Positions 3,402 to 56,621 of a DNA stretch of 64,000 bases are shown one piece after another (position 1 is the stretch's first letter; each line of letters starts with the position of its first letter). The DNA comes from Vulcanisaeta sp. JCM 14467 (GTDB taxonomy: Archaea > Thermoproteota > Thermoprotei > Thermoproteales > Thermocladiaceae). The stretch lies in contig NZ_BBDM01000004.1 of NCBI RefSeq assembly GCF_001316245.1, positions 1 through 64,000 on the forward strand, read 5' to 3'. The translations under genes were made by a program, and so were the position numbers. Under the pieces are notes generated by a model. It saw only the letters and a program-made list of their open reading frames with translations, searched no databases and was not told where the DNA came from.

Positions 3402-4709
3402 TTACCCCCTGGATCTCTTCGACGACCTACGTTGAGCCCCCTCACCCTCACCACTGGCTCCCACCCCCTCGATACCCAACGCCTTCTCAACACTCTCCAG
3501 GGAGTAGCCCATGACCTTCATCAACCGCTCAAGTAATTTCTTCTTGAATACGTCGCTCGTAGCCATCAACCTTAGTAGCGGCATGTAGTAGAGCGAAACC
3601 TCGGAGCTACTCACGTGGAGCTCGACCTTAAGCCTATTGATCAGCGCATCCCTAATCTGCCTAACCTCCTTGGTACTCGCCAACAACCTAATCCTCTCAG
3701 GGAATGAGAGCCTAACGAACCTGGCAAGCCCAGGCTTATTACGCACCAACGCAACGCCCGCGGTCATTAACTCAAGCATGTAAGGCATCAACTCCCACTC
3801 CTGGGTCTTAACAATCCTACCCCTAACCACGTCGGATAGGGATAGGTTATCGAGAGCATCACTAACGGCCTCAGGGGACTTCGCATACACCGTGGGTATA
3901 TTGTCCAGGGCCCATGGGTAATAACTCTCCCAGTCGAAACTCGGTAGGAAGGTTACGGACCTAGCATCCTCAAACCTCCTCGCATGGAACACCCTATCAA
4001 GGACCTTGAACATGTCGAATTGGTGGGCCCTCTCCGTAACCGCAACATCATCCCTGGTAAGGACCCTCTTACCCTCCGCAGCAGCCTGAAGGTCATTAAT
4101 CGCAGCCCTAACATCACCGCCCGATGCCTCGGCAATGAGCTTCAGAGCATCCTCCTCACACTTAATGCCCTCGGCATTGCAAATCCTCCTCAGTATAGTC
4201 ATTATGTCACCCTCACTCAACGGCTTAAGCTGAATGACCTCAGCCTCATCCCTCAACTCCCTAAACTTCGGGTCCCAGGGATTGTTAGCCGTCATTATGA
4301 TGGGCCAGGTGGACTCCCTAATCAACTCCACAATGGCAGCCAAGCCACCGCGATCCTCCCTAACATTAAGCCCATCAACCTCATCAAAGAGTATGATCCT
4401 ACCCCTAAAACCAAACAACGAACCCATCCTCATGGAACCACCAATGACCTGCCTAATCCTCTCACCAGTCCTAACATCACTGGCATTCAACTCAAGAACC
4501 TCATAACCCCTCTCATTAGCCAGGGCATAGGCAAGCGTCGTCTTACCAACACCAGGAGGACCAGCAAGCAACACAGCCTTCTTACCAGGCCTACCCTTCT
4601 CCCAAGCATTAATCCAATCAAGCAAAGCCCTCTTAGCCTCCTCCTGATCAACAACATCATTAAGCCTCCTAGGCCTATACTTCTCAACCCAAGGCACTCT
4701 ACTAGACAT
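3402..4709 (-). CDS. rfcL: replication factor C large subunit (clamp loader)
   Basis: A 435-residue archaeal RfcL, the large subunit of the ATP-driven clamp loader that places PCNA on primed DNA. The N-terminus has the RFC box (PWVEKYRPRRLNDVVDQ), the Walker A AGPPGVGKTT, Walker B LFDEVDG, and the ELNASD sensor region; a lid and collar domain follow. The C-terminal tail is short and basic (RRSSKRSRG) and has no clear PIP-like end. I start it at the ATG at 4709, since upstream codons (to 4778) are unlike RFC and a minus-strand TATA-like GTTTATTTAG lies about 28 bases before this ATG. The small subunit rfcS is encoded about 12 kb away at 16.5 kb rather than next door. Confidence 0.93.
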   Translation of the reverse strand: MSSRVPWVEKYRPRRLNDVVDQEEAKRALLDWINAWEKGRPGKKAVLLAGPPGVGKTTLAYALANERGYEVLELNASDVRTGERIRQVIGGSMRMGSLFGFRGRIILFDEVDGLNVREDRGGLAAIVELIRESTWPIIMTANNPWDPKFRELRDEAEVIQLKPLSEGDIMTILRRICNAEGIKCEEDALKLIAEASGGDVRAAINDLQAAAEGKRVLTRDDVAVTERAHQFDMFKVLDRVFHARRFEDARSVTFLPSFDWESYYPWALDNIPTVYAKSPEAVSDALDNLSLSDVVRGRIVKTQEWELMPYMLELMTAGVALVRNKPGLARFVRLSFPERIRLLASTKEVRQIRDALINRLKVELHVSSSEVSLYYMPLLRLMATSDVFKKKLLERLMKVMGYSLESVEKALGIEGVGASGEGEGAQRRSSKRSRG

Positions 4710-4732
4710 TACAGAAAAACAAGGGCAAGTAA

Positions 4733-4743
4733 CTAAATAAACG
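4733..4743 (-). promoter_or_regulatory. TATA box of rfcL
   Basis: Minus-strand GTTTATTTAG about 26-30 bases upstream of the rfcL ATG, the spacing expected for a leaderless archaeal transcript. It lies between rfcL and the distal end of the CRISPR array. Confidence 0.5.
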
Positions 4744-4816
4744 TTTCCAAACAAAAACAAAGTACTACAACAAATCAACTAAGCCAAGAATACGATAATT
4801 CAATCCACCACGAAGA

Positions 4817-5858
4817 ATTTTAGTTTCTTATTGTTGTTACTGGATGAATGAGCCACTACTGACCTCGCTAATCACTATTTTAGTTTCTTATTGTTGTTAC
4901 TTGATGCCTAATGTTGGGCCTTGGACTGAGTACAATTTTAGTTTCTTATTGTTGTTACGTAATAATAAGTCAGCCACGTCATATAGGTCAATAATTTTAG
5001 TTTCTTATTGTTGTTACATCTTGATTGGCATAGCCCTACTCACGGTATTTGTGTATTTTAGTTTCTTATTGTTGTTACCTGCAGGCTCGTGTAGTTAGTC
5101 TTCAACGCCTGGTACTATTTTAGTTTCTTATTGTTGTTACCCCTATTGGGACGAACGTGTATGTGAGACGACGATAGATTTTAGTTTCTTATTGTTGTTA
5201 CTCTGTTCCTGTTGCTGCTGAACAAGGGTTATCGCTGGATTTTAGTTTCTTATTGTTGTTACACCTAAGCAAGATGGCTGTGGTGAGGCTACACATCCAT
5301 TTTAGTTTCTTATTGTTGTTACCGGCAACATCGCGGTCTACCCAACCACAGGCGTAGGATTTTAGTTTCTTATTGTTGTTACAGCTTTATCCTTCGTGTA
5401 GACCACGAATCTGGATTAATATTTTAGTTTCTTATTGTTGTTACAGAAACTATGTCATTCAACGGCTCCAACTCTTTCGAATTTTAGTTTCTTATTGTTG
5501 TTACCGCCTTTCCTAATCTGCTCTCTGAGGGCCATGTAAATTTTAGTTTCTTATTGTTGTTACACGATAGACCAAGCCCACGATAATCATAGGCCTAATT
5601 TTAGTTTCTTATTGTTGTTACAATTCCCTCAAGGTCGTCATGCTAAATCACCCATATTTTAGTTTCTTATTGTTGTTACAATGATGCACTTGGTAGTGGT
5701 GTAATTGAGAAATATTTTAGTTTCTTATTGTTGTTACATACGTAATGAGTAATCAGACAAACACGGAGATTATTATTTTAGTTTCTTATTGTTGTTACCT
5801 TGACCAAGTACTATGGGGAACAATACTTGATTGGATTTTAGTTTCTTATTGTTGTTAC
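4817..5858 (-). CRISPR. CRISPR array, 18 repeats and 17 spacers
   Basis: Eighteen identical 24-base repeats (plus-strand form starts ATTTTAGTTTC and ends TTGTTGTTAC) alternate with 17 spacers of 34-38 bases. Repeat starts: 4817, 4877, 4935, 4994, 5055, 5117, 5178, 5239, 5299, 5359, 5421, 5481, 5540, 5598, 5656, 5714, 5775, 5835. I assign transcription to the minus strand: that form ends in GAAACTAAAAT, comparable to the GAAA(C/G)-type 3' handle of crenarchaeal repeats, and a minus-strand TATA box lies about 45 bases before the first repeat at the high-coordinate end. The leader end is therefore at 5858 and the oldest spacers lie near 4841. No degenerate terminal repeat is seen. The array adjoins a type I-D cas operon. 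Confidence 0.98.
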
Positions 5859-5898
5859 TGGATCGTGGCTGTTCGCCGCACCTACGCCCCACTCAACG

Positions 5899-5908
5899 AT
5901 TTATAAGC
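5899..5908 (-). promoter_or_regulatory. promoter of the CRISPR array (leader)
   Basis: Minus-strand GCTTATAAAT is a good archaeal TATA box. A start about 25 bases downstream would fall near 5875, 17 bases before the first repeat. This fixes the array direction. The leader ends in ATCCA directly before the first repeat, as it does in the satellite array at 15.9 kb. Confidence 0.65.
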
Positions 5909-5941
5909 ATTTCTGGGCATTAAATATCGTAGAAACTCCAT

Positions 5942-6012
5942 AACTCATTTAACGGCGGATTTACGAGAAGCAGAATGATGGGTCGAAAACGAGGAAGTAA
6001 ACTCATTTAACG
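5942..6012. repeat. pair of 13-bp direct repeats between array and cas2
   Basis: AACTCATTTAACG occurs at 5942-5954 and again at 6000-6012, 58 bases apart start to start, in the divergent promoter region between the array leader and cas2. The second copy ends about 24 bases before the cas2 TATA box. They may be binding sites for a regulator such as Csa3, or leader anchoring sequences; this is inference. Confidence 0.5.
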
Positions 6013-6035
6013 AGTAAGGGGTCGTGGAGGTAAGG

Positions 6036-6047
6036 AATTTATAGTTT
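6036..6047 (+). promoter_or_regulatory. TATA box of cas2-cas4
   Basis: AATTTATAGTTT lies 20-31 bases before the cas2 ATG at 6067, the spacing for a leaderless or nearly leaderless transcript. Confidence 0.55.
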
Positions 6048-6066
6048 ATTAAGTGGGTGTTGTTGC

Positions 6067-6357
6067 ATGTATGTTGTAGTTTCTTATGACATTTCTGATG
6101 AGAAGGTACGTGGAAAGGTTCGGCGATTATTACGGCGTTACGGTCTATCATTTATATCCAGATCAACCTATGCAGGAAGAATTTCTTGGAACAGGATCAA
6201 TTTCCTATCAGAGAAGATTAGTAGAATTATTGGAGAGGGAGATATCGTGGCTTTCATACCAGTCCAGAACGTTGACTTTGAAAGAACACTTATCGTCACC
6301 AAAAATAAGGTATCGGGATACGAGGTACAGGTTGTCTTTGCCGGCGAGGATATTTGA
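6067..6357 (+). CDS. cas2: CRISPR-associated endonuclease Cas2
   Basis: A 96-residue Cas2 with the ferredoxin-like fold: MYVVVSYDISDEK supplies the first strand and the conserved Asp (D9), followed by RRLLRRYGLSFISRSTYAGRIS and a terminal YEVQVVFAGED strand. Cas2 is the structural core of the Cas1-Cas2 integrase that inserts spacers at the leader end. It reads away from the array leader and overlaps cas4 by 20 bases. The reading frame is intact. The length is normal for the family. Confidence 0.92.
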   Translation: MYVVVSYDISDEKVRGKVRRLLRRYGLSFISRSTYAGRISWNRINFLSEKISRIIGEGDIVAFIPVQNVDFERTLIVTKNKVSGYEVQVVFAGEDI

Positions 6358-6832
6358 TGACTTACTGGTTTGTAGGTTACGGAGTAGATTTGCGATTGAG
6401 AGGGTTAAGGCTTTGGAGGATCCTAGGATGGAGTATGAGAGGAGGGAGGGTGATGTTAGGTTTGGCGAGAGGAGAAGGATGGAGCTTTACTTCTATGCAG
6501 GGGAGTGGGTTAGGATCGTGGGCATACCCGACGCAATAATTAATAACGTAGTTATTGAATTCACAATTACTAGGCAGAATATTAGGCACATCCTGGGTAG
6601 GGCCGTGATCTACGCATACATGTGCATGAGGGAGAATACGGGCTGTGCAACCCTGATAGTCCCTACGACGGGAGGTGGTGATGAGGTGGGCTACCTGGTA
6701 ATACCAAACTCCGGGTTTCTTGAGTACTTATCTAATGAGTTGGCTGAGGTATTGAAGGGCGAGGTTGAGGGGTTGAGGAATCCCTTCTGTAAATCCTGTC
6801 TCTACAGGAATGTATGTCCCTATGGTTTATAA
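6338..6832 (+). CDS. cas4: CRISPR-associated exonuclease Cas4
   Basis: About 164 residues starting at TTG 6338, inside the end of cas2; the same frame stays open further upstream but that part is the cas2 shadow. Cas4 features: an N-terminal Cys (LLVCRLRSRFAIERV), a RecB-like nuclease core including GIPDAIINNVVIEFTITRQN (Asp and Glu metal ligands, with FTITR replacing the usual E-x-K), and the C-terminal cluster CKSCLYRNVCPYGL that completes a 4Cys iron-sulfur site. It trims prespacers and helps PAM-correct integration. Its stop overlaps the convergent cas1 end by 13 bases. Confidence 0.85.
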   Translation: MPARIFDDLLVCRLRSRFAIERVKALEDPRMEYERREGDVRFGERRRMELYFYAGEWVRIVGIPDAIINNVVIEFTITRQNIRHILGRAVIYAYMCMRENTGCATLIVPTTGGGDEVGYLVIPNSGFLEYLSNELAEVLKGEVEGLRNPFCKSCLYRNVCPYGL

Positions 6833-7723
6833 ATGAATGGTTGAAAGTCGATGGACTCGACCACGAACTTCCTTAGGTCATTGGCCTTACTATAGATTTC
6901 TCCCCTCACTGTTCTCTTACCCTTCTTCTTATGCAGTATGGTGTATAGGTGCTTCGTTATTAATTCAAGCCCGTCCTTCCTGAGATAACCCTCGCTGTCC
7001 AGGGACAACTTACTTCTCCTTGACACTGCAATCACGGTATGAATGGCAACGGGCTTAAACATCTCCGAGAAGTCGTAAACAAGCGATGGCCTACCTGGCT
7101 GGTCCACGTGTAATAAGCCTGCGTAGGGGTCTAGTCCCGAGGCTATTAGAGCGTGTGTTGAGAGTGTGTATATTATTGCGTATGCGTAGTCCAACGCCCT
7201 ATTTATTGGGTCATCACCCTAGCTTCCTGCCTGGGAATTCCTTGGGCATGAATTTTCTCAATTCCTCCCACGCCATTTTACTGAGTTCAGCCTCCTCGAG
7301 TATTAACGACTTCCTATCCCTAGCCTTAAGCCTTACCTCGAATTCATTCACCACCACCTTATCTATGTAGGAGAAGTACTTAGCCACATTAAGTATGCCG
7401 CGGATTTTACCCTCAATGAACTTCCTCGCCAACAATAGCCTAGAATCCTCATCCAATGCGTAATACTTCCTCCTAATCTCACTTATCGTGTTTGTGAATG
7501 GCGTAACTAGAATAGTGTCTGTCCTCCTTCCATGAATTAAAATGGGTATGTTCAATGATGAGAGGAAGTTTATGACCTCTGAGGAGAGACTCACGTTATT
7601 CCCAACGATAATGAGTAGTTCTAGGTCTAGTGTAGATACTTGTCTCACCATATTATCGCCCCAATTAATAATCAAGTCGGAACCCTTCCTCCTAATGTTG
7701 GCGTTCTTAACAATCAGTATCAT
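6820..7723 (-). CDS. cas1: CRISPR-associated integrase Cas1, frameshifted
   Basis: Two overlapping frames combine into a Cas1 of about 300 residues. The N-terminal piece (from ATG 7723) holds the beta-rich domain and the region LILEEAELSKMAW, where the second Glu aligns with the catalytic Glu of the family; the C-terminal piece has DYAYAIIYTLSTHALIASGLDPYAGLLHVDQ with the catalytic His, and LVYDFSEMFKP with the catalytic Asp. The break is at about 7220: after PGRKLG the continuation DDPINRALDYAY appears one frame over, explained by one extra base in a G/C run. All active-site residues are present, so I read it as a sequencing error in a working gene. It is the last gene of the csa3-cas6-cas1 arm, with a TATA-like TTTAAATAAG in the gap before it. 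Confidence 0.88.
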
Positions 7724-7768
7724 AGGATTATCAGTAAATTATCAGTTTAAATTATTCTTATTTAAAGT

Positions 7769-8610
7769 TTATCCAAACTTTATTTTTACAAAACCAAAAC
7801 CCGCCGCCCTACCTGACCCTACGCCCATCTCCATGGCATCCCTTAGTATTTCTCTAATAGCCCTCTTAGCCCTCTCGGGCGTGTTTCTCCGCAGGAAGTA
7901 CTTTGCATAACCTATGACCCCAGGTAACCATTTCCCATCATAGTAGTACCAGGTCTTGGTCACAGTATTGAGGATGGTGTGCGACTCCACGAGTGCGTAG
8001 GAAAGCCTGATTATGTTTCTGACGTACTCATCCTTAAATATGTCGTAAACATTTACTGAAAAGACCACGGCCGGGTGCGGTATGAACCTCCTGGCCTTAT
8101 CACGACTTTCGGCTAGGGATATCTTAGCGAATGGGTCAACAAAGAGGGCTGGGGTTATGAAGTAAACCCTAACACTATTAAAGTCCTCTGGGGCTGTGGT
8201 ATCGATTCTCTCATACTCAATGAGCTTAACCTTAACCCTGGAGGACCCGTAATCAAACTCTAAACCACTGGTTAATCTCGAGACTGCTAGGGCAATCTGT
8301 AACTCCAGGGGTTCCCTATAACCAATGTACACGTTATAGCGCCGCCAACACTTATTGGCTTAGGCTCCTGCCTAGGCCTTCCTGAACTCTCGCCAAACCT
8401 AGTAATGATTATCCTGGGGTAGACTGGCTTTTCATCACCTTCATTAAGTAGTGGCGTGATCCTAATGGGCTTGGGCGTTGGTTGATCCTTACCTTCAAAA
8501 ATGCTCTGTAGCTCCGGGTTGGCATTCATTAATATGGTTTTCACGAACTTCCCGGTGAAGTCCTTGGTCACGAAGTGCGAGACGTAGATTTTTAGTTTAA
8601 TTAGCGGCAC
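7769..8610 (-). CDS. cas6: CRISPR RNA endonuclease Cas6, frameshifted
   Basis: Two frames give about 280 residues. The C-terminal piece ends in MGVGSGRAAGFGFVKIKFG, the glycine-rich signature of Cas6 near its C-terminus, and the N-terminal piece begins MPLIKLKIYVSHFVTKDFTGKFVKTILM, the usual first ferredoxin-like strand and helix. The frame changes near 8320-8330 (TCTLVIG then YREPLELQIALAVSRL). Cas6 cuts the pre-crRNA at the base of the repeat to release crRNAs. It starts 4 bases after csa3 stops, so they are one operon. The catalytic residue is not obvious from sequence, as is common in Cas6. Confidence 0.85.
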
Positions 8611-8614
8611 TTAA

Positions 8615-9253
8615 TCACCTCATTAGGTTCAGTATTACCTTACCCATTATCGTTGTCTCGCATAACTTGGTCCTCCTACCAATTCTTTCGCAACTTACCA
8701 ACTCACCCAGGGCATTGAGTTGGCTCACTATGGTTGACTCTGACTTATCCATAATCCTGGTTATGTCGCTTAGACTCAACTTTGTCGTTAATAATTCAAG
8801 TAATTTCAATTGTTCCTGCGTCGGTATCCTGGGGATTGATACAGGTAACTCATAGAAATTTTGCATGTTCTCATCGAATGCGTAAACCCTAACCCTCCTA
8901 ATCTTACTTAAGATAAGTGCCAGGTAATATAGTGCCAGGAGCAGTATACGCATTCCACCTATTAGGTAAAATTCCACGTAACCATCAAATCCCCCCATAC
9001 TCGATATCTGCAGCAGTACACTATCAAATGGTACATCCACATTAACGCTAATTACCTTAACGTCCCTAATCCCAACAATGTCCAGGTACTTCAAGATCGC
9101 GCCCATGGCATCCTCATTCCTCCTCCTGGAAAATTCATCCTTAGGCATGGCCGTAACGAGGATCACCTTGGACACATCATTCACGCCCCTACGCGTTAAG
9201 GCCTTTATTACGTACTCCGAGGAGAATCCCACGTTGAATACCAGGGTGGTCAT
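8615..9253 (-). CDS. csa3: Csa3-type CARF-HTH regulator of CRISPR-Cas
   Basis: A 212-residue protein with an N-terminal CARF (Rossmann-like ligand-binding) domain (TLVFNVGFSSEYVIKALTRRG, then YVEFYLIGGMRILLLALYYLAL) and a C-terminal winged helix (LLTTKLSLSDITRIMDKSESTIVSQLNALGELVSCERIGR). This is the Csa3 layout: a cyclic-oligonucleotide-responsive transcription factor that controls cas genes or spacer acquisition in Crenarchaeota. It is divergent from cas10d with 112 bases between them, well placed to regulate both arms. In Sulfolobus Csa3 is tied to type I-A; finding it inside a type I-D locus is worth noting. Confidence 0.85.
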   Translation of the reverse strand: MTTLVFNVGFSSEYVIKALTRRGVNDVSKVILVTAMPKDEFSRRRNEDAMGAILKYLDIVGIRDVKVISVNVDVPFDSVLLQISSMGGFDGYVEFYLIGGMRILLLALYYLALILSKIRRVRVYAFDENMQNFYELPVSIPRIPTQEQLKLLELLTTKLSLSDITRIMDKSESTIVSQLNALGELVSCERIGRRTKLCETTIMGKVILNLMR

Positions 9254-9365
9254 TAATATTCATGTACTCATAAATAAATATAAACCTTTTTCTACATTAT
9301 CGCCAAAATATCACGAACATGAGATTAAGTGATAAAGCTTATAAAGGGATACTATTAACATACTA
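9254..9365. promoter_or_regulatory. divergent promoter region csa3 / cas10d
   Basis: Contains CTTATAAAGG at 9338-9347, a TATA box 19-28 bases before the cas10d ATG at 9366 (leaderless). On the minus strand an A/T-rich TTTATATTTATTTATG stretch near 9266-9285 can serve csa3. The region is the likely site for autoregulation by Csa3; I see no perfect palindrome in it. Confidence 0.5.
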
Positions 9366-11891
9366 ATGATGGCTTACGTAGGCAGTAAGGAGGTTGACCT
9401 GGTCTCTAGTGCGTTGAGGTCAGTGACGTTTAAGCAAGGGGTTAGAGAGGCTAAGAAGAGATCGCCGCAGTCATATATATTCCACGCAGTCTCTGTAGGT
9501 GTCTTATCTCTCGACATTTGTAGGGCAATATATAACGAGAGCGATGTAGGTAGGCAATTACTTAGTAAGTTGGCGGATAACTATGGGATGCCATATGAGG
9601 AATTATGTTTCTATGGCGGTTTCCTGCATGATTGGAATAAGCTTGAGGGTAAGGAGGAGGGTGCGAGGGAAATAATGAACAAACTGGGCCTTGGTGGCCG
9701 TGAGGAGTTCCTTCATGGGATAGCCGCAATGGCTGAGGGCTCATTACCAGATAATCAGCACCTACCCCTTTGGGTATCGATTAAGTTAGCCGACATGCTC
9801 ATGATAAGTGAGATAAATAGCGTCAATGATGTCTTTAAACACGTAAGCTCACGTGCGTACCAGGATGCGGTAAGGGCCCTTGAGAACTTTGGGCTAAGGC
9901 TAGGCCGCATCTCCGCAACATTTCGTTTATTCACCCTAATAGCATCAAGGGATTTACTAAACGAGGTAATTAATGGCCCAGGGTACTACCCACTAATATC
10001 CTACCCTGACGGGCTAGTATTCCTACGTAGGCGGGATGCACCGCCAATACCGCTAAGTAAAATCGCAGACGTACTTAATAAAAGGGTATTCACATCATCA
10101 AAGGAGGAAGTAGAAAGTAAGGTTGAGGAAATAAGGAGGTGCCTAAACAGTAAGATTAAACTATTCAGGGAAATGAACATAGACGTTAAATCGGCCATTT
10201 ATAAGGACGACGGAAAAATGAGACAAGTCAATGAATTCCTACCTACAAAGGTATGTAAGCCCTTCGAGGACATTGTCGGCAACCTAGATAATGCAGCAAA
10301 GCTTGAGGTGGCTAGAAGTATCATTAAGGAGCTCGGGGATGAAATACCGTATGGTGTCCTAATGTATTTCGTACATAAGTTTAGTAAGAGCGATAAAGAT
10401 TACATAAGGAGAGGACTAGGAATTAGTGAGGGATCACTGGAATACCTGGAGAGCCTTGATCTACAGAGGGCGAGGGAGATGCTGGGTAAAATACTTGAGC
10501 TATTGCAGGCTAGGTACCCATTGAATGCCCAGGGCATTGATAAGACGCTTCAATACTATGTGAAACACTCATTTAGTGGGGACGTGATTGATGACCTACC
10601 ACCCATCAATGAGAAGCCGAAGAATTACTGCGTGGTCTGTGGTATGCCCATATACTCAGAAGGTTCCGTAAGGTTTGTCCAATATGCCACTGAATTAGGC
10701 GGTAAGTCCGAGATTTGGGTACCTAGGGAGAGGGGGTTGGAGAATATTGACGATATAAGAGATGAACTGAGGGTGTGCCCGATCTGTACTTATGAAGCCA
10801 ACGCATTAAAGAGCGTGGCTAAGCCTCCGTACTTCATCATTACGTTCCAGCCAGGCGTGCCTGTAAGTCTCCTTGAGATTATAGATTTTGAGCAGGTGGA
10901 TATTAATTACAGTATTGATGAGGATGAGAATTATTACAGCGCATTCAAGAGGATGGGTGGGGGCTTCAATCCAAATTCACCAAGGGTTTTACCAGGTTTC
11001 TTCTCATCGAAGGTCCTGATCAAGGCATCGGAGGTAATTGAGTCTAAATTATCGAGGTCCACGAGATTAAGTAAGAGTGAACTGAATAAGTTATTGCCAT
11101 ATGCGCACATGATTTCAATAGTATTCCTAACCTCCCCAGTGGCAATATCCTCAAGCATTTATGAAATACCCTCAACACAGAATTATGTTGTTTCAGTAAC
11201 ATCGGCATATAATTATGCTTCATAAATCCGCTCAAATTTAAGACCAACCTAAATATGCTCTACGCCTTATCCGCATACTCGGCTAAGTACCTCGTGATTA
11301 GGAGCGTGAGCGTCAGCAAGGATGAGTTGGACAATAACTTGAATAGTATGGTTAATGAAGCCGACCTCTACTCCACCGTGGATCCATCCCTCGGCATCTT
11401 AAGCGTGGGTATGGGTATTGGAACCCCCATTGAGCTTGATGCCAGGTTTTTTTCGAAACCTTAAATTACTTAGATACATATTGGATGTTGCCGGGAGGGT
11501 GAGTGAGATGGGTAAAACCATCAGATCTTCCATTTACACGATCGCCCACGTATTGAGAGAGGTGGTTAGGAGCCAGGACGTGACTAAGTACGATGTAGTG
11601 GGATTCCTGAGGGATGGCGTGGATATGTTCTTCAGAACCTCAACCATAATACATGATAAGGATGATAGAATTGGCGTCTCAATAAACGCGGCGATTTCGT
11701 CACTTGAGAATAAATACTCACTAAATGATGTGCAGAGGGCGAAGGTATACTCAGCCTTAGAGGACTTATTCGAGTCCTTATATGAGATTGAGGAGAAGGC
11801 GGATAGGAGCTTAGCAATTTCAATAGCCAACACCCTCTCAAACTGGCTATATATTGCTTATAAAATAGTCACCCAAGGTGATAAGTCATGA
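9366..11891 (+). CDS. cas10d: type I-D effector large subunit Cas10d (Csc3), frameshifted
   Basis: Three frames combine into about 840 residues. The N-terminus carries the HD nuclease motif FYGGFLHDWNKLEG (H87-D88), which in type I-D replaces the HD of Cas3. A zinc-binding pair follows: YCVVCGMP near residue 422 and VCPICTYEAN near residue 471. The remainder is the degenerate palm region (GGGFNPNSP) and a helical C-terminus. Breaks: near 11221 (NYAS then INPLKFKTN) and at a run of seven T at 11445-11451 (DARFF then RNLKLLRY). Cas10d recruits to the Cascade-like complex and degrades target DNA. The last 127 residues probably also make Cas11d from an internal start. Confidence 0.9.
11508..11891 (+). 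CDS. cas11d: putative Cas11d small subunit from an internal start in cas10d
   Basis: An in-frame ATG at 11508 within the 3' part of cas10d is preceded by GGAGGGTGAGTGAG, containing GGTGA five bases before the ATG, the same type of ribosome binding site used by other internal genes of this window. Translation would give 127 residues, mostly helical (MGKTIRSSIYTIAHVLREVV, then SLNDVQRAKVYSALEDLFES). Established knowledge: in type I-D systems the small subunit Cas11d is made by internal initiation near the cas10d 3' end. The size and helical character fit. The call for this species is inference from the RBS and position. Confidence 0.5.
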   Translation: MGKTIRSSIYTIAHVLREVVRSQDVTKYDVVGFLRDGVDMFFRTSTIIHDKDDRIGVSINAAISSLENKYSLNDVQRAKVYSALEDLFESLYEIEEKADRSLAISIANTLSNWLYIAYKIVTQGDKS

Positions 11892-11912
11892 GTGGGAGGG
11901 ACGTATTAGCAG

Positions 11913-12944
11913 GTGTTTGGCTTAAAGAGCTTTGAGGAGATCAGTAGGTACTTTGCAGACCTTAGTCAACCCAATAAGGAAAACGCGGTGCCCAGGGGTA
12001 GGGTGGCGAACGTATTCGTGGTAATACAAGCCGAGGGTGAGTTGGTAATTAGGCACGAAGGCGGCGAGGACGTGACGCTGGCCACGATAGACGGCGATAA
12101 ATACCCAATGATACTGCATGAGAAGCTGGTCTCTGCCTGGAGGAGACAAATGTTAGAGATATTAAGAAGTGACTACGACATCCATAGGAAGGAAATTAAT
12201 GAAATACTTGGAAAGGGTGAGAATTACCAGTGGCACTGCTCGTTAAGGCCGACCATCACCGTAAAGAAGAGTAGGGGTAGGGAAAGTACGGAGGAAAAAA
12301 ATGGGCGGTCTTTGCAGGGAATGCCCCAATTGCATGGTGTTCGGCTTCGCAGTAGGTGAGGGCGAGAGGTATAACTTAAAGAGTAGGGTTGAGGGAGACA
12401 TATACCTAGCAACGACGCCTGAGAGCAGGAGCGTGGTGATTAGAACCTTTAATGCCGTTGATGAGGTTACACACACGACCTACATACAGGCTGAGGGTGA
12501 AAGAACTGGCGCCCTCTTTAGGCTTTCCCTGATAAGGGAGGGCACGCTATTCGTGGGAAAGATCGCGCTTAAGGACTATCACCGGCAGAATTTGCCTTGG
12601 CCCTATATAGCCTGGCGGTTACAACGAGGATTGGCGGCGTCAAGAGTGATTTTGGTAAGGTCAAGATAATAATCCCAGCAATAGCCCTGTGCGATCATGA
12701 GGTCTCATCAGGCTATGAAGTCTTTGGAAGGGTTAAGGGTCTCGATAATGTTAGTGAGGTTGTGAGGATAATCAACGACCACGTTAAACAATTCAGCAGT
12801 GAGTGCCGTGTATTTACCTCAGAGGATTTTGCAAAGAGGATTATCGAGACCGTGGGTAAGAATAAGCATGAGATAATAGCCGAGGCCTGGAGAGATGGTC
12901 TAAACTTCAAGAAGAGCATTGAGGCCTTCATTGGGGCAGAGTGA
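11913..12944 (+). CDS. csc2: Csc2 (Cas7-type backbone of type I-D), frameshifted
   Basis: Three frames give about 340 residues. Csc2 features: an N-terminal [25 protein letters not shown] segment, a middle Cys cluster [16 protein letters not shown], and [20 protein letters not shown]. This subunit polymerises along the crRNA. Breaks: a seven-A run at about 12295-12301, and near 12587 (DYHRQ then [10 protein letters not shown]). The annotated start is GTG 11913; an ATG at 11888 overlapping the cas10d stop (ATGA) could be the true start if a further base is missing near 11912, giving MSGRDVLAG before VFGLKSF. Confidence 0.88.
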
Positions 12945-12950
12945 TCGATA

Positions 12951-13732
12951 ATGAAACTATACAGGGCCTACTTCAAACTCCATGGTATATTAATATTTTC
13001 CTCAGAGATCAGACCCATGATAACTGCTGGGGAAGCGATGGGTTCCTACATATCTCCGTCACCCTACATTCATAATTACCCCGTTATGTACGGTTTAATG
13101 GGAAAGCCATCAGAGACCTACTTCGTTTTCCCATCGCTGCATTACTTAGATTATGAGGAGAGGATGAGGAGGACGCCAACACGAAGGGGCTTGCAATACA
13201 CGAGTATTAGGAAATTATTAGAGGATTTTAAGAACGGAAGGGATTCCTTCTACGTATTCCCCTTAATACCCACCAAACTTGTGGTATCATCATTCCTACT
13301 TTCAGCCGAGTCCTGGAGTTACGTAATCCCCACCAGGTCGCCAACTAAGAACGTATTCCCCAGGCTAACGAGCTATGCCGCATTCATGCCAGGTAGTGAG
13401 TTTAAAACCTACGTGGTTGTTCAAGGCAAGGTCAAGCTACCGGAGTGGGTAAGAATCGGCAAGAAGAGGTGGGGCATATTTAGGGTTGATTATGATGAGG
13501 TGAGGGTTGAGGGAGTGAGGATAGAACGTAATAGGGTAACATCCATCCCAATAAACTATAACGATGCCAAGTTCTTCGGCTTTGAACTAAGGTCATTTTC
13601 AAAGGTCTTGGAAACACCAAACATCGAGGAAGGCTGATAGGCTGGGCCGAGTTGGAGGAGTGCACCGTGATTCGAGGCACGATTAATAAGGATAAGGTTG
13701 AGGTTTGCCTACCCATAAGGTGGGGGGATTGA
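12951..13732 (+). CDS. csc1: Csc1 (Cas5-type subunit of type I-D), frameshifted near the end
   Basis: Begins MKLYRAYFKLHGILIFSSEIRP, the Csc1 ferredoxin-like N-terminus, then TAGEAMGSYISPSPYIHNYPVMYGL, the conserved family segment. It caps the 5' handle of the crRNA. One frame stops at 13637 (NIEEG), but a continuation one frame over, GRLIGWAELEECTV, runs to a stop at 13732 directly before the cas3 ATG, so a base is missing near 13622. Restored length about 260 residues. Six bases separate it from csc2. Confidence 0.85.
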
Positions 13733-13733
13733 A

Positions 13734-15702
13734 ATGAAGAGTGGGTTGACAGGCATATCATTCACAGTGAAGGAGGCGTACATCGAGGAGGGGGATGCGA
13801 TAATCAACGGAATCAGGCTAAGGAGGTTCCAGGAGGAGTTATTCAACTCCTTAGGGAAATATAGGAGGATCCTGTTAAGGGCACCAACGGGCTCCGGTAA
13901 GACGTTCACGCTAATACTTGCGGCAATAAAATCCCGCCTAGAGGCGCAGCACTACCCAGTCGTTGGAATCTACCCATCAAAGGCCCTGGTTTATGACCAG
14001 GCAAGAAGTATATGCGAGACATTGAGAAAAATGGGGCTTAGGCAGTATGAGAATCGATTTATCGGCGATATAGTCATTAATGGTGAGAATAAGGGAAGCA
14101 TTGAATTGAACATCTACGTGGTGACCAGCGAGAGTAGGAGAGGCATCGTTACGGCAGAGGACGATTGTTGGCAGGGAGATATACCAAGTGATTACCCGCC
14201 CTCGGTAATACCAATAGTCCTCACAGTCCCTGAGTATCCCTACATGATCATAACCGCGATGAATAGGCAGTACACTGCGTCACGAATCATCGAGGCTGCG
14301 CTTAAGTATGACTTCGACGATGCGGTGAGGGTGTTGGGCGGCTTGAGGAGTGAGGTTAGGGAATTATATAATGACTTTGCGAGAGCCTTCAATGGGTATT
14401 GGTTCATAGATGAGTTCCATCTATATTCAGGGTTAGCGAGAAAGTCAATGCTAGCCTTAATTGAGATGTTCGAGAAATACAATAGTGTGATTAAGAGCAA
14501 TAAGAGTGTCGTGTTCTCATCAGCAACGCCAGTACCAATAAGCGTTGATAAGGCTATAGAGGTTAAAACCGTGGATAAAGGCAGCAGGATCAGAAAGGCA
14601 ACACACGTTGTATTTCATCTATCTACCCATAATCCTCAGGAGGAGTTAGTGAATTACGTGCAGGAGGGTGGGGAGGTAAGGACTGCGGTCATACTGGACA
14701 GAATTTATTACATAGCTGAATTATGCAGGAGGGTTAAGGATGCAGCCGTGGTTTGGGGTCTTGACATAGCCTACGGAAATTGTAGAAAGGTTGAGAAGGG
14801 ATTGGATAGGGAGAAGTTCATAATAGGGAATCAGGCTATGTCCTTTGGTATTGACATAGACCTCGATAAAGGCTTCATCCACGCGCATGACGCGGAAACT
14901 AATACAGAGGTTCGGGAGGTTTGGTAGGCATGGGAATGGAGCTGCCGAAGTTCACGTGTTCATCGAGGCTGGAGCAAAGGCAATACATGAGTTAAGCAGC
15001 GTTAAAGGTAAGGACGTGAGTTATGAGGAATTCCTCGATTTAATCAGAAAGATATATAGGGAGAGAATTTATGATAAACTCGATGAAATATTCTTTTCAA
15101 GGATAAGGTATGACATAATGATGAGGGTATTCACATTAACCTACGCAGTTTCACAGGGTGAACACGTTTATTCACTTGCTAGGCAATGGTATCCCAGTAA
15201 CGAAGCTTTAATAAATGGTAAGCCCATTCACGAAATTTTAAGGCCATCATACGACGAGTACTTCTACGTCTTCGCCTATAGACCAGGCGGTTTAAGGGGA
15301 CGTTGGTGTGAGGGTGGAGAAGATGAGTTATTCTCGATGTTACGAAACTTCGCGTACGATCACTACAATCACTGTTTCACGAAGAACCCATTGAAGGAAA
15401 TGCCCGCTATTATCCCAAGCGAGCGAAAGATAGGTAGTGTTAAGTGCGACTTTATGACATTTAACGACTTCAGCAGGAGTCTAAGCCCGAGACTCATCCT
15501 ACAGAGACAGGGCATGTCCGTACCAATGAGTCGAATGAGGGAATTCGAAAACTCTTACGTGGTGATGCTCACGAGAGAATGCACGGACTGGGGCAGCGAT
15601 TTCCCAGAGATGGCTAGGCTAGTCTCAACCTACGAAAACGCAATACCAATATACAGGGATGAACAGTTAACAACGGTCATTGGACTAGCCCTATTCATTT
15701 AA
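13734..15702 (+). CDS. cas3: Cas3 helicase of type I-D (no HD domain), frameshifted
   Basis: About 655 residues over two frames. Superfamily 2 helicase motifs in order: Walker A LRAPTGSGKTFT (near residue 48), Walker B/DExH variant WFIDEFHLYSG (near 223), motif III VFSSATPVP (near 262), and motif VI LIQRFGRFGRHGNG in the second frame. No HD nuclease domain precedes the helicase, as expected for type I-D where Cas10d carries it. The break is near 14897 (HDAET then LIQRFGR), one base missing. It begins one base after csc1 ends and is the last gene of the effector operon. Confidence 0.9.
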
Positions 15703-15875
15703 TCCTCAAATAATCCAAAAACTCATTTACCGTATCCATCCTACGTCAAGCCCAAATTAACAAAACACCAACGCATGAAGCAAATAACATAAAAATTACA
15801 ATAAGTCCCTAGACACCCTAAATCTTCCCTATCTTTGACTATATATCTAATATCTTGACATCATGTACGCATCCA
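15703..15875. other. leader-like intergenic region before the satellite array
   Basis: A/T-rich non-coding DNA between cas3 and the two-repeat array. It contains a plus-strand TATA-like CTATATATCT at 15839-15848 and, like the main leader, ends in ATCCA directly before the first repeat. No gene seen. Confidence 0.45.
15839..15848 (+). promoter_or_regulatory. TATA box of the satellite CRISPR array
   Basis: CTATATATCT, 28-37 bases before the first satellite repeat at 15876, similar to the promoter-repeat layout of the main array. Confidence 0.4.
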
Positions 15876-15958
15876 GTAACAACAATAAGAAACTAAAACG
15901 AGATATTCAGGCGAGTGGCCGTGGATAAGCCACTGTAATAACAATAAGAAGCTAAAGT
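15876..15958 (+). CRISPR. two-repeat satellite CRISPR array
   Basis: A 24-base repeat at 15876-15899 (GTAACAACAATAAG then AAACTAAAAC) matches the reverse complement of the main array repeat except for a final C instead of T. After a 35-base spacer (15900-15934) comes a degenerate copy at 15935-15958 (GTAATAACAATAAG then AAGCTAAAGT; three differences, T for C at position 6 and G for A at 17 and 23, plus the end base). The decayed second copy is what terminal repeats usually look like, so this is a minimal array with one spacer, in opposite orientation to the main array, at the far end of the cas locus. Confidence 0.85.
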
Positions 15959-15964
15959 TCCTAT

Positions 15965-16315
15965 ATGAGGTGTCATATCATTAATGAGGGGATTGGGGAT
16001 TTGTCCGTAATATGGATTGGTAAGGGTGTGGCTTTGGGGTTTGGTTATGTGGTTGCGGAGGTTGTTGGTGAGCGTCCTATTCCTCATCATTGATTGGGCC
16101 TTTACTTATTTTCATTAAGGCGGCTAGATGCTCTTTTCTACTGTTATTTAATGATCCTTTAGTTTTTCTTACGCTAGGCACGATAAGAGGAGGTTATACA
16201 TTGGGCTATGCTGCTTTTACCTCGCGTGTTTTTATCATAGTTAGATATTACGGGTCCAATGGGCGTTTTTAGCGGTTGGTGTCTTTATAATTGCTTGGAG
16301 AATTAGAGTTGTGAA
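15965..16315 (+). pseudogene. possible remnant of a membrane protein gene
   Basis: Short plus-strand frames without a joint reading frame: 15965-16093 (GKGVALGFGYVVAEVVGERP), 16090-16272 (LGTIRGGYTLGYAAFTSRVF) and then VGVFIIAWRIRVVKS. The glycine-rich hydrophobic segments resemble transporter helices. They could be the decayed end of a transporter gene or just chance frames in G/T-rich DNA. No family can be named. Confidence 0.2.
16283..16292 (+). promoter_or_regulatory. TATA box of C/D box sRNA
   Basis: CTTTATAATT; a start about 25-30 bases downstream falls just at the left arm (16319) of the inverted repeat that encloses the sRNA. Confidence 0.45.
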
Positions 16316-16318
16316 GTC

Positions 16319-16393
16319 GGGCCCAGGGTGTGATGATGGTCCAAACCACTGACCCTTGATGAACTGTCCTTGGGCTGACCCTTCCCTGGGCCC
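16319..16393 (+). ncRNA. C/D box sRNA enclosed in a 10-bp inverted repeat
   Basis: All four boxes are present at ideal spacing: C box GTGATGA 16330-16336, 12-base guide, D' CTGA 16349-16352, C' TTGATGA 16356-16362, 12-base guide, D box CTGA 16375-16378. This guides 2'-O-methylation of rRNA or tRNA at the base paired to the fifth position upstream of D/D'. The guides are 16337-16348 and 16363-16374. Perfect inverted repeats GGGCCCAGGG (16319-16328) and CCCTGGGCCC (16384-16393) flank it, and TGTTTTT follows, like a terminator. Lies between the CRISPR locus and rfcS. Targets not identified. Confidence 0.88.
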
Positions 16394-16477
16394 TGTTTTT
16401 ATTATTGTATTGGAGTTATAAGCCTTTCGTTGTTTTATGTCGTTGTTCTTCTCCTGGTTGTTGTCGTTTTGGTCTCC

Positions 16478-17479
16478 CTAGTCGTAGTTGTTTCCCTTGC
16501 CCCTAACCCGTGTTTTTTTGCCTATTAGCATTAGTTTTGCTAGGAAGGCTGTTAGTTGTATTTCCTCGTCTGAGCCCTCGGTTAATCTGTAGTCTATGTC
16601 TGCTGCCGTCTCGGCTATCTCGACCTTAGCCTCGTCTGGTACGTTGATGGCTCCGCTCATTATTTGTCTCTGTATTGCCCTGAGGATCTCCGTGCCTGAC
16701 ACGCCGTGCTCATACATTAGCATCCTCAACTTGTCCCTGGCCTTCATGAAGTCTCCGCTGAATGCCGTGTTTACTAGGTCGATTATGTCCTTAGGCTCTA
16801 TGTAGCCCACTGTCTTGTAGATGACCTCTGGCGTTATCTCCTTCGCTGTGGCGGCGGCTGCCTGTAGCGTGTTTATGGCTTTCCTCATGTCTCCCTGGCT
16901 TACGTCCCAGATGGCTTCTAGGGCTTCGTCTGTTATTTTCACGCCTTCCCTCGAGGCGATTTCCCTGAGTCTGTTTAGGACTGCGTCCTTGGGTAGTGGT
17001 GAGAATCTGAACATGGCGCACCTGGACTGTATTGGGTCTATAATCCTGGACACGTAGTTCGCAATTAGTATGAACCTGGTGACCCCTGCGTACATCTCCA
17101 TCATCCTCCTCAGGGCCTGCTGTGCGTCGGAAGTCATGTTGTCTGCTTCGTCGAGTATGATTAACTTGTAGGGTGCCTTGCCCATTGGTGCTGTCCTTGC
17201 GAATTCCTTAACCCTCTCCCTAATCGTGGTTATACCCCTCTCATCACTCGCATTAAGCTCCAATACGTTTTCGCGCCATGCGTCGCCGTATAATTCGTGG
17301 GCTATTGCCAGGGCCATCGTTGTTTTGCCAGTGCCTGGTGGTCCGTAGAATAGCATGTGGGGCATGTTGCCTGTCTTCAGGAATTGCTTGATCCTGTCCT
17401 TAACCTCCTCCTGGTCGATAATGTCGTCAATCCTCGCTGGGCGGTACTTCTCAACCCATATTAATTCTGCGATTGACAT
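16478..17479 (-). CDS. rfcS: replication factor C small subunit
   Basis: 333 residues, intact. RFC box [17 protein letters not shown], Walker [20 protein letters not shown], Walker [12 protein letters not shown], the SRC motif ([10 protein letters not shown]) holding the arginine finger, then collar domain. Four small subunits pair with one RfcL in the archaeal clamp loader. The C-terminus is short and basic ([13 protein letters not shown]). No intein, which often interrupts this gene in euryarchaea. It starts at ATG 17479. Confidence 0.95.
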
Positions 17480-18348: not shown

Positions 18349-19802
18349 TTATCCCTTAACGACGCCTATTGGTACGTGCCTCGAGACCCTCTTGGCCATG
18401 CCCGTTAGCTCGGCAACCTCGGCGACCTTGTCAACGTTCTTATAAGCTCGGGAGCCTCCTCGGATATTATCTCGCTCTCAGCCGACCTAACGATTATGCC
18501 CCTACTCTCCAGTGCTCCCCTGACCTTGTTCGGCGGTAGCATTCTGACGGCTGCTGACCTACTCAGTGTCCTGCCTGCGCCGTGTGGTGCTGTGCCGAAG
18601 GTTACCTGGAATGATGTTGGTAGTCCAATGAGTACGTAGGACGCAGTGCCCATACTACCCGGTATTAAAACCGGCTGCCCAATGTCCCTGTACTTAGGTG
18701 GTATCTCGGGCCTACCCGCTGGGAATGACCTTGTGGCTCCCTTCCTATGCACGAGAACCCTCCTGACGTGACCCTCATCATCGATTACGTGATCCTCGAT
18801 CTTGGCAATGTTGTGGGCAACGTCATAGACGATCTCGAGACCGAGCTTGTCTGGGTCCTTGCCAAAGACCCTCCTGAAGGCCTCCCTGACCCAGTGCGTT
18901 ATTATCTGCCTATTAGTCCATGCGTAGTTGGCGGCTGCCTTCATGGCTGCTAGGTAGTCCTGGGCCTCCCTGGTGTTTAGGGGCATTGATGCCAACTCCC
19001 TGTCCGGTAGGAATAATCCCCACTGCTTCAACTTATTCTCAGCAACCCTTATGTAGTCAGTGGCGACTTGGTGACCAAGGCCCCTACTACCCGTGTGTAT
19101 TAGGACCATTACCTGCCCCTCCTGCTCAATACCAAGTCTCTTAGCCAGTTCTGGGTCGAATATCTTATTAACGACTTGAATCTCAATGAAGTGATTACCA
19201 CTGCCCGTAGTCCCAAGCTCATCCTTACCCCTCTCCTTAGCCCTCTGACTAACCTTGCTCGAGTCAGCACCCTCGTAATGCCCAAACTCCTCAATGAAGT
19301 TCTTATCATCGCCCCACCCATAGCCCTTACTCAACGCCCAATCAACACCCTCATCAAGCACCTTATCAAGGTCGCCAAAGGATAGCCTTAGGAGCCCAGT
19401 CTCACCAACACCTGCAGGGACCAACTTGAATATCGTGTCCACTAACTCCCTGAGCTTTGGCCTAACGTCCTTCTCCGTCAGGTTGGTCCTAAGGAGCCTA
19501 ACGCCGCAGTTAATATCATAACCAATGCCTCCAGGACTCACCACACCGTTTTCCATATCCATGGCAGCCACACCACCCACTGGGAATCCATAGCCCTGAT
19601 GAGCATCTGGTAGGGCTATGCTGTACTTGTAAATGCCGGGTAGGCAGGCAACGTTGGCTGCCTGCTCAAGTGTCATGTCGGTCTTCATTTTCTCAAGTAG
19701 TGTCTCGTCTGCGAATATCCTGGCTGGCACCTTCATGCATGGTTTGTATCCCTTTGGTATCTCCCACACATAATCGCTTATTTTCCTCAATGGTGGTACC
19801 AT
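18349..19802 (-). CDS. rtcB: RNA-splicing ligase RtcB, frameshifted near the C-terminus
   Basis: About 484 residues, the GTP- and Mn-dependent 3'-phosphate RNA ligase that joins tRNA halves after intron removal. Active-site segments: ALPDAHQGYGFPVGGVAA, GGIGYDINCGVRLL (Cys metal ligand), GTTGSGNHFIEIQ, VLIHTGSRGLGHQ, VYDVAHNIAK, and APHGAGRTLSR carrying the guanylylated His. One frame runs to 18405, but after EEAPEL the true end KNVDKVAEVAELTGMAKRVS is found one frame over, ending PIGVVKG at 18349; one base is wrong near 18445. No intein. A partner for the intron-bearing tRNA-Gly in this window. Confidence 0.93.
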
Positions 19803-56571: not shown

Positions 56572-56621
56572 TCAGTTATTTACCCATTCATCACTTGCTC
56601 AAGAGACCGTCGTCTCATCAC
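56572..56621 (-). ncRNA. C/D box sRNA
   Basis: On the minus strand: C box GTGATGA (56621-56615), 12-base guide (56614-56603), D' variant TTGA (56602-56599), 4-base spacer, C' GTGATGA (56594-56588), 12-base guide (56587-56576), D box CTGA (56575-56572). Both guides have the exact 12-base length of archaeal sRNPs. A minus-strand CTTTTAAGCC at about 56643-56652 gives a promoter at the right distance. Only D' departs from CTGA. Methylation targets not identified. Confidence 0.75.

What the first reader, a model, noticed from the sequence alone, without database searches (positions are those of the whole stretch)
16319..16393. C/D box sRNA clamped by a GC-rich 10-bp inverted repeat
All C, D', C', D boxes are canonical with 12-base guides. 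Most archaeal C/D sRNAs have only short terminal stems; here GGGCCCAGGG and CCCTGGGCCC could form a 10-bp terminal helix stacked on the kink-turn, and TGTTTTT follows. The helix may help circularisation, shield the ends, or double as a terminator hairpin.
Basis: partly seen in the sequence, partly recalled or inferred. Interest (0 to 1): 0.55.

Follow-up and report, generated by a model that had tools for sequence, protein, structure and literature searches.

The report
Clamped guide RNA on CRISPR island
A hot-spring archaeon carries, at the edge of a stretch of inserted DNA that also holds a CRISPR immune system, a gene for a small RNA of the kind that guides chemical marking of other RNAs, and its two ends can pair unusually strongly; the kind of RNA is ordinary, but where it sits and how firmly its ends pair are not.

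Summary
At 16319-16393 (+) lies a textbook archaeal box C/D sRNA with two 12-nt guides, flanked by a perfect 10-nt GC-rich inverted repeat; the genome is a Vulcanisaeta. Among 83 C/D sRNAs (this one and 82 of relatives) its terminal helix is the longest (10 bp; next 8, 6, then at most 5); 12 of 200,000 shuffles of its flanks match it. Its TATA box sits 13-16 nt further upstream than the peak in 40 others, as expected if the 5' arm is transcribed. Two corrections. First, the 10-bp register does not stack on the kink-turn: the canonical register uses AGGG/CCCT (16325-28/16379-82), and the same AGGG cannot pair in both. No orthologue was found. The D' guide resembles a guide for U34 of tRNA-Gln(UUG) but pairs there over only 8 bp; by complementarity alone neither guide beats shuffled controls. 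A new member of a known kind, perhaps imported.

The parts
16284..16291 (+). TATA box (box A) TTTATAAT; predicted transcription start about 16312-16318
   Evidence: 8 of 8 match to YTTTAWAW starting at -47 from box C; in 40 other C/D sRNAs such sites peak at -34 to -31. The start site is inferred
16319..16328 (+). 5' arm of the clamp, GGGCCCAGGG
   Evidence: 10 Watson-Crick pairs with 16384-16393, longest of 83 sRNAs
16325..16328 (+). AGGG, 5' side of the canonical kink-turn stem; pairs 16379-16382, or 16384-16387 in the clamp
   Evidence: register 1 nt before C / 0 nt after D, 4 Watson-Crick pairs, highest of 83; GGG/CCC aligned in Rfam snoPyro_CD
16330..16336 (+). box C, GTGATGA
   Evidence: Rfam alignments
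16337..16348 (+). D' guide TGGTCCAAACCA; candidate target U34 of tRNA-Gln(UUG), 8 contiguous bp
   Evidence: first 9 nt equal to the D guide of another sRNA of this genome and genus
16349..16352 (+). box D', CTGA
16357..16362 (+). box C', TGATGA
16363..16374 (+). D guide ACTGTCCTTGGG; no target found above chance (orphan)
16375..16378 (+). box D, CTGA
16379..16382 (+). CCCT, 3' side of the canonical kink-turn stem
16384..16393 (+). 3' arm of the clamp, CCCTGGGCCC
16396..16400 (+). T5 run, probable transcription end
   Evidence: T5 within 36 nt of box D in 5 of 83 sRNAs, this one included; termination inferred
4710..16434 (.). insert with a type I-D CRISPR-Cas system between the start of rfcL (ATG at 4709) and the end of rfcS (borders approximate); the sRNA ends about 40 nt from its right border
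   Evidence: rfcS and rfcL lie a few nt apart in 9 of 10 relatives' loci; rfcL ATG and the end of the RfcS tail, read in a shifted frame, at 16435; I-D cas genes; array 4816-5872 and mini-array 15876-15956; Cas10d in 1 of 25 genomes, the own one

Best explanation
It is an independent gene for a box C/D 2'-O-methylation guide sRNA with its own TATA box and T-run, lying at the edge of an insert that carries a type I-D CRISPR-Cas system and parts rfcS from rfcL, and probably brought in with it. The RNA should assemble with L7Ae, Nop5 and fibrillarin. The D' guide most likely pairs with the anticodon arm of tRNA-Gln(UUG) and places Um34, a job for which the genome already holds a better-matched guide; the D guide has no target, as reported for tRNA guides of Pyrobaculum. 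The GC-rich ends first close the transcript as a 10-bp helix that brings boxes C and D together. On L7Ae binding the inner four pairs can slip from the distal CCCT to the proximal one, giving the canonical kink-turn stem, while the outer GGGCCC/GGGCCC pairs stay or are trimmed. Shown: boxes, clamp, both registers, place of the TATA-like box, insert. Inferred: transcription, slipping, methylation, import of the sRNA itself.
For: Canonical boxes and 12-nt guides. Clamp an outlier among 83, 12 of 200,000 by chance. TATA box set back by about the length of the 5' arm. Canonical stem at the 1/0 register present as well, 4 bp, the best of 83. No full-length match outside this genome among 101 genomes; rfcS and rfcL adjacent in 9 of 10 loci; Cas10d of the insert not found in 24 relatives. 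The D' guide shares 9 consecutive nt, in register, with the D guide of an sRNA of this genome and seven others (6 of these 8 loci identical over all 12 nt), which pairs 10 bp with tRNA-Gln(UUG) at U34. The review PMC7994747 (section 6 read) says that tRNA guides come with a second guide that has no target. In vertebrates, a model for newly copied C/D snoRNAs is that they are expressed if they have a promoter and a stable terminal stem (PMC10234308, abstract and passages).
Against: No expression data. By complementarity alone both guides are at the level of shuffled guides (D' 8.0, D 8.6; 120 shuffles: median 8.0, 95% at 9.4). The D' pairing with tRNA-Gln mismatches at positions 1, 3 and 12 from box D'. 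TATA-like sites in the other sRNAs are also frequent at -22 to -11, so the promoter argument rests on one peak. Four neighbourhoods of related I-D systems hold no C/D element, so no link of the sRNA with the Cas system is shown; it may have arisen or arrived separately. Flanks of a S. acidocaldarius sRNA could be mutated without effect on maturation (PMC7994747, section 9, citing Tripp 2017), so a clamp may be dispensable.
Confidence: 0.55

Rival explanations
1. A C/D sRNA whose clamp promotes circularisation: the paired ends are held side by side and ligated.
For: In T. kodakarensis 21 of 24 circularised RNAs shown could form a terminal stem of 3 or more pairs, and 16 of 17 non-circular C/D sRNAs are less likely to; Rnl fails when the stem is disrupted (PMC9014305, passages). 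RtcB is encoded 2 kb away.
Against: The Rnl family TIGR01209 was found in 0 of 41 genomes, G000 included (it did ring in 2 of 14 named control genomes; G000 is 81.6% complete). PMC9014305 says that P. aerophilum and two Sulfolobus species lack type-3 Rnl too.
Confidence: 0.15
2. The clamp is chiefly a transcription terminator or 3'-end signal that ends the sRNA and keeps it from running into the convergent rfcS gene, whose end lies about 40 nt away.
For: GC-rich arm followed by TGTTTTTATTATT; rfcS converges, with its tail ending at 16435 in a shifted frame or at 16478 as the frame stands.
Against: Arms 55 nt apart; no terminator-like hairpin found. PMC3491384 (section 10) describes a T-stretch as a commonly used archaeal terminator element. 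A terminator would not need the 5' arm to be exactly complementary.
Confidence: 0.12
3. A former or decaying guide gene: an orphan copied with the insert, without present function, whose clamp is incidental.
For: Both guides at chance level for rRNA and tRNA; no orthologue found; several cas genes of the insert read as broken frames.
Against: All four boxes and the TATA-like box are perfect matches, unlikely for a decaying gene. The broken frames may be sequencing indels: rfcS also shows a shift at a run of seven A, and completeness is 81.6% for 2.44 Mb.
Confidence: 0.18

Closest known systems
Archaeal box C/D sRNAs (Rfam snoPyro_CD RF00095, sR9 RF01312, sR5 RF01304)
   Same: Four boxes, spacing, 12-nt guides, GGG/CCC stem at the 1/0 register in snoPyro_CD
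   Different: Scores below gathering; an inverted repeat extends the stem to 10 bp in another register; sits in an insert with a CRISPR-Cas system
sRNA for U34 of tRNA-Gln(UUG) in Vulcanisaeta and related genera (G000:C10:2206 and loci of seven other genomes; target assigned here)
   Same: Nine consecutive guide letters in the same register, same N+5 nucleotide
   Different: There it is the D guide and pairs 10 bp; here it is the D' guide and pairs 8 bp; no such clamp is visible there (sequences)
Circular C/D sRNAs with terminal stems of T. kodakarensis (PMC9014305)
   Same: GC-rich pairing ends
   Different: Stems described as three or more pairs against ten here; the ligase Rnl was not found here
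Mobile C/D sRNAs at borders of split genes in Nanoarchaeum equitans (PMC3491384, section 10)
   Same: sRNA gene at the border of DNA that parts what is normally joined
   Different: There genes are split; here a gene pair is parted by an insert with a CRISPR-Cas system
Vertebrate C/D snoRNAs with terminal stems (PMC10234308)
   Same: Stable terminal stem linked to expression, also of copies in new loci
   Different: Eukaryotic, mostly intronic

Membership tests
archaeal box C/D sRNA | Boxes C RUGAUGA, D' CUGA, C' UGAUGA, D CUGA in order | tested here: met
archaeal box C/D sRNA | Guides of 10-12 nt, short D'-C' spacer | tested here: met
   12 and 12 nt, spacer of 4 nt
archaeal box C/D sRNA | Terminal stem next to the C/D kink-turn (1 nt before C, 0 after D) | tested here: met
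   AGGG/CCCT, 4 bp; GGG/CCC in Rfam alignment. The geometry is recalled from L7Ae structures and agrees with the Rfam consensus; in the set this stem is mostly absent (58 of 83 have 0 pairs)
archaeal box C/D sRNA | Complementarity of a guide to rRNA or tRNA with the N+5 rule | tested here: inconclusive
   8 bp to tRNA-Gln, D guide orphan; both at null level
archaeal box C/D sRNA | Match to an Rfam C/D family at gathering score | tested here: not met
   22.3 bits against 36 (sR9), 21.4 against 45 (snoPyro_CD); not a defining feature in itself: such families are mostly single guides (recalled), so a miss is expected for a new guide pair
archaeal box C/D sRNA | Expression and binding of L7Ae, Nop5, fibrillarin | not testable with these tools
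   no RNA or binding data
Rnl-circularised C/D sRNA | Terminal stem of at least 3 bp | tested here: met
Rnl-circularised C/D sRNA | Rnl encoded in the genome | tested here: not met
   TIGR01209 in 0 of 41 genomes; G000 incomplete
intrinsic terminator hairpin | GC-rich stem with short loop before a T-run | tested here: not met
   loop of 55 nt; none found

The most novel reading that the evidence does not exclude
The insert carries its own tRNA-modification guide on purpose: the sRNA places (or competes for) 2'-O-methylation at U34 of tRNA-Gln(UUG), next to a CRISPR-Cas system, for example to shield that anticodon from a virus- or toxin-borne anticodon nuclease, or to make the host depend on the insert. 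The slippery clamp would let the RNA fold and survive in a new host without help.
Probability: 0.07. Interest if true: 0.75.

Novelty: new member of a known kind. Interest (0 to 1): 0.36.

Why it matters
How archaeal C/D sRNA genes spread is open: the N. equitans paper asks for the basis of their mobility (PMC3491384, section 10). A self-contained guide gene, with TATA box, strong clamp and T-run, sitting just inside a recognisable insert at a gene-pair break gives a concrete case of possible horizontal spread. The two overlapping stem registers make a simple prediction about clamp versus kink-turn that can be tested with synthetic RNA and L7Ae.

Tried and rejected
G021 'homologue': the D half (C', guide, D) matches at 92% over 25 nt and 2 of 81 genomes, G000 and G021, hold the pattern; in G021 it lies beside Csa3-like and helicase/methylase-like genes (recognised by eye). 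It folds as a hairpin of about 17 bp, and a relaxed C/D scan of the region found nothing, so I rejected it as an sRNA.

One search shows the tail continuing in the next frame after a run of seven A (KKHGLG...RRRTTT, stop at 16435-16437), like the tails of relatives, so the right border is nearer to the sRNA than I first wrote.

rRNA targets: hits of the D' guide at 9 lie on the antisense strand. Sense hits in 16S or 23S reach at most 8.6, at null level. A match of the D guide inside the intron of tRNA-Cys (8 bp, seen by eye) is not among the two best hits listed for it and is taken as chance. Two 9-nt matches of the D guide to rfcS mRNA (16985, 17191) are taken as chance: both seem to fall on Lys-Asp codons (read by eye).

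CRISPR link: the mini-array spacer has no match of 11 nt or more elsewhere in the window (two of 10 nt), and no 9-mer of the 17 main spacers lies in 16271-16420, so a CreA-like control of the sRNA is not supported.

Viruses and plasmids: patterns in viral contigs gave 7, 0 and 21 stretches; none of these 28 contains a C/D element with an exact C box. No match in phages or plasmids.

Own-genome search for better targets: D guide 20 one-mismatch places besides itself (reversed control 9), D' guide 11 (control 23); none coincides with the rRNA or tRNA places (against 12, 13, 19).

Not tested: 5S rRNA, SRP RNA and RNase P RNA as targets; spliced forms of intron-containing tRNAs; two weak tRNA matches of 48 (L170, L171) were left out of the target set.

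Full report
What is there. The + strand at 16319-16393 reads as a complete archaeal box C/D sRNA: box C GTGATGA, a 12-nt guide, D' CTGA, four bases, C' TGATGA, a 12-nt guide, D CTGA. The pattern C-D'-C' occurs once in 64 kb and in 0 of 100 shuffled windows. Rfam's archaeal C/D models match it over its length but stay under their gathering scores. No listed open reading frame of 60 aa or more covers it. The genome is a Vulcanisaeta, judged by the neighbouring rfcS gene (93% identity to V. distributa).

The clamp. GGGCCCAGGG and CCCTGGGCCC are perfectly complementary. I took C/D sRNAs from the window and from relatives by the exact pattern (125 hits in 17 of 25 genomes, summed from its table), had flanks for part of them (91 sources, the window included), and measured the longest Watson-Crick helix with up to 6 nt between helix and box on each side. 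In the first set, 40 other sRNAs had at most 5 bp. In the larger set of 83 distinct elements with a D box (this one included; 12 more without a clear D box were left out) the values were 10 for this one, 8 for one of G026, 6 for one, 5 for six, and less for 74. Shuffling its own flanks gave 10 or more in 12 of 200,000 trials. So the clamp is real and extreme, though not without a cousin. The set holds orthologues, so the 82 are not independent.

Two registers. In box C/D kink-turns the terminal stem ends one nucleotide before box C and directly after box D (recalled from L7Ae structures; the Rfam snoPyro_CD consensus shows the same). In that register this RNA has AGGG (16325-16328) on CCCT (16379-16382), four pairs, the highest of 83; 58 of the 83 have none. 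The duplication CCCTT-CCCT thus offers AGGG two partners: the distal one continues the GGGCCC helix, the proximal one fits the kink-turn with the outer six pairs kept across a 5-nt bulge. By nearest-neighbour energy alone the 10-bp form is better (-20.6 against -13.6 kcal/mol at 37 C; -6.5 against -2.0 at 80 C), but the calculation ignores kink-turn and protein. I infer that the long form folds first and L7Ae shifts the inner pairs.

Transcription. In 40 other sRNAs TATA-like sites (6 of 8 or better) are most frequent 34 to 31 nt before box C (29 sites in that bin; 0-8 in each bin further upstream; but also 12 at -30 to -27, 20 at -22 to -19, 12 and 11 in the next two). Here the best site, a perfect one, starts at -47, 13-16 nt further out than the main peak. 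With a start site about 25 nt after the box, transcripts would begin just before the 5' arm. A T5 run follows the 3' arm; such a run occurs within 36 nt of box D in 5 of 83, this one included. Transcription is inference from sequence.

The setting. In 9 of 10 relatives' loci, rfcS is followed within a few nucleotides by rfcL (the tenth, G013, was not caught by my motif). In this genome rfcL lies at 3402-4709 (ATG at 4709) and rfcS begins at 17479; its listed frame stops at 16478, but the usual tail continues in the next frame to a stop at 16435-16437. Between rfcL and rfcS are a CRISPR array of 18 repeats (4816-5872), cas2, cas4, cas1, cas6, a csa3-like gene, cas10d, csc2/cas7d, csc1/cas5d and cas3d, and an inverted two-repeat mini-array at 15876-15956. 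The system is type I-D. Its Cas10d has no match in 24 related genomes and matches in 5 of 397 other genomes of a phylum sample, at best 50% identical. The sRNA lies between the mini-array and the end of rfcS, about 40 nt from the latter. Its DNA has no full match in the other 100 genomes (49 of 101, the own included, give hits at E up to 1, the foreign ones short, best E 0.006). Four other Cas10d neighbourhoods of 17-19 kb hold no C/D element. So the sRNA, like Cas10d, was seen only in this genome among its relatives, but a working link to the Cas system is not shown.

Targets. I scored guides against 16S, 23S and 46 of 48 tRNA matches of this genome, with the N+5 nucleotide paired. Of 84 guides (this sRNA, 40 others from this and related genomes, and the one at G000:C10:2206; one search gives the number) 33 score 10 or more; 120 shuffled guides have median 8.0, 95% at 9.4 and maximum 10.4. 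This RNA's guides score 8.0 (D', tRNA-Gln(UUG), U34) and 8.6 (D, 23S and 16S), no better than chance. What lifts the first is likeness to another guide: nine consecutive letters, in register, equal the D guide of an sRNA at G000:C10:2206 that I also saw in loci of seven other genomes (6 of 8 with identical 12 nt, 7 of 8 with CTGA after it; loci picked from search hits, not by a systematic survey) and that pairs 10 bp with tRNA-Gln(UUG) at U34. The review PMC7994747 (section 6, citing Lui 2018) says that tRNA-targeting sRNAs of Pyrobaculum have a second guide without target, and that 28% of guides there had none (passage). I put the tRNA-Gln target at about 0.4.

Function of the clamp. Circularisation through Rnl needs a terminal stem (PMC9014305, passages), but Rnl was found in 0 of 41 genomes. 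RtcB lies at 18405-19802 and could act. A terminator role is weak. The reading I prefer is a folding and end-protecting stem, as proposed for vertebrate snoRNA copies in new loci (PMC10234308, passages). Against it, flanks of a Sulfolobus sRNA could be changed without harm (PMC7994747, section 9).

Literature. Searches with C/D sRNA and CRISPR/mobile/horizontal terms, with Vulcanisaeta and sRNA, and with archaeal virus/plasmid terms listed no paper that by title or start of abstract deals with a C/D sRNA beside a CRISPR-Cas system (only the first 15, 4 and 8 of those found were listed); of these I looked at passages of PMC3396285 only. The Pyrobaculum survey (Lui 2018) and another paper looked up by DOI were not held.

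Verdict. Observation confirmed; interpretation partly supported. A new member of a known kind, with an extreme clamp and an unexpected address.

Noticed in passing
4710-16434: An insert with a type I-D CRISPR-Cas system parts rfcS from rfcL; its Cas10d was not found in 24 related genomes.
   Followed up: partly
6820-15702 and about 16513-16522: cas1, cas6, cas7d and cas3d each read as two or three frames, and rfcS shifts frame at a run of seven A; real decay or sequencing indels cannot be told apart here.
   Followed up: partly
15876-15956: Two-repeat mini-CRISPR in the opposite orientation to the main array, second repeat diverged; its spacer has no match of 11 nt or more elsewhere in the window.
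   Followed up: partly
56572-56621 (- strand): A second possible C/D sRNA with one box mismatch (D' TTGA); the relaxed scan gave none in 20 shuffles.
   Followed up: no
18405-19802 (-): RtcB RNA ligase gene 2 kb from the sRNA, beyond rfcS.
   Followed up: no
L265 (G026:C3:74170-74430): Another C/D sRNA with a perfect 8-bp terminal inverted repeat, second longest of 83.
   Followed up: no
L206 about 7560-7660 (G021:C41): Hairpin of about 17 bp next to csa3-like genes; it mimics half a C/D sRNA.
   Followed up: partly
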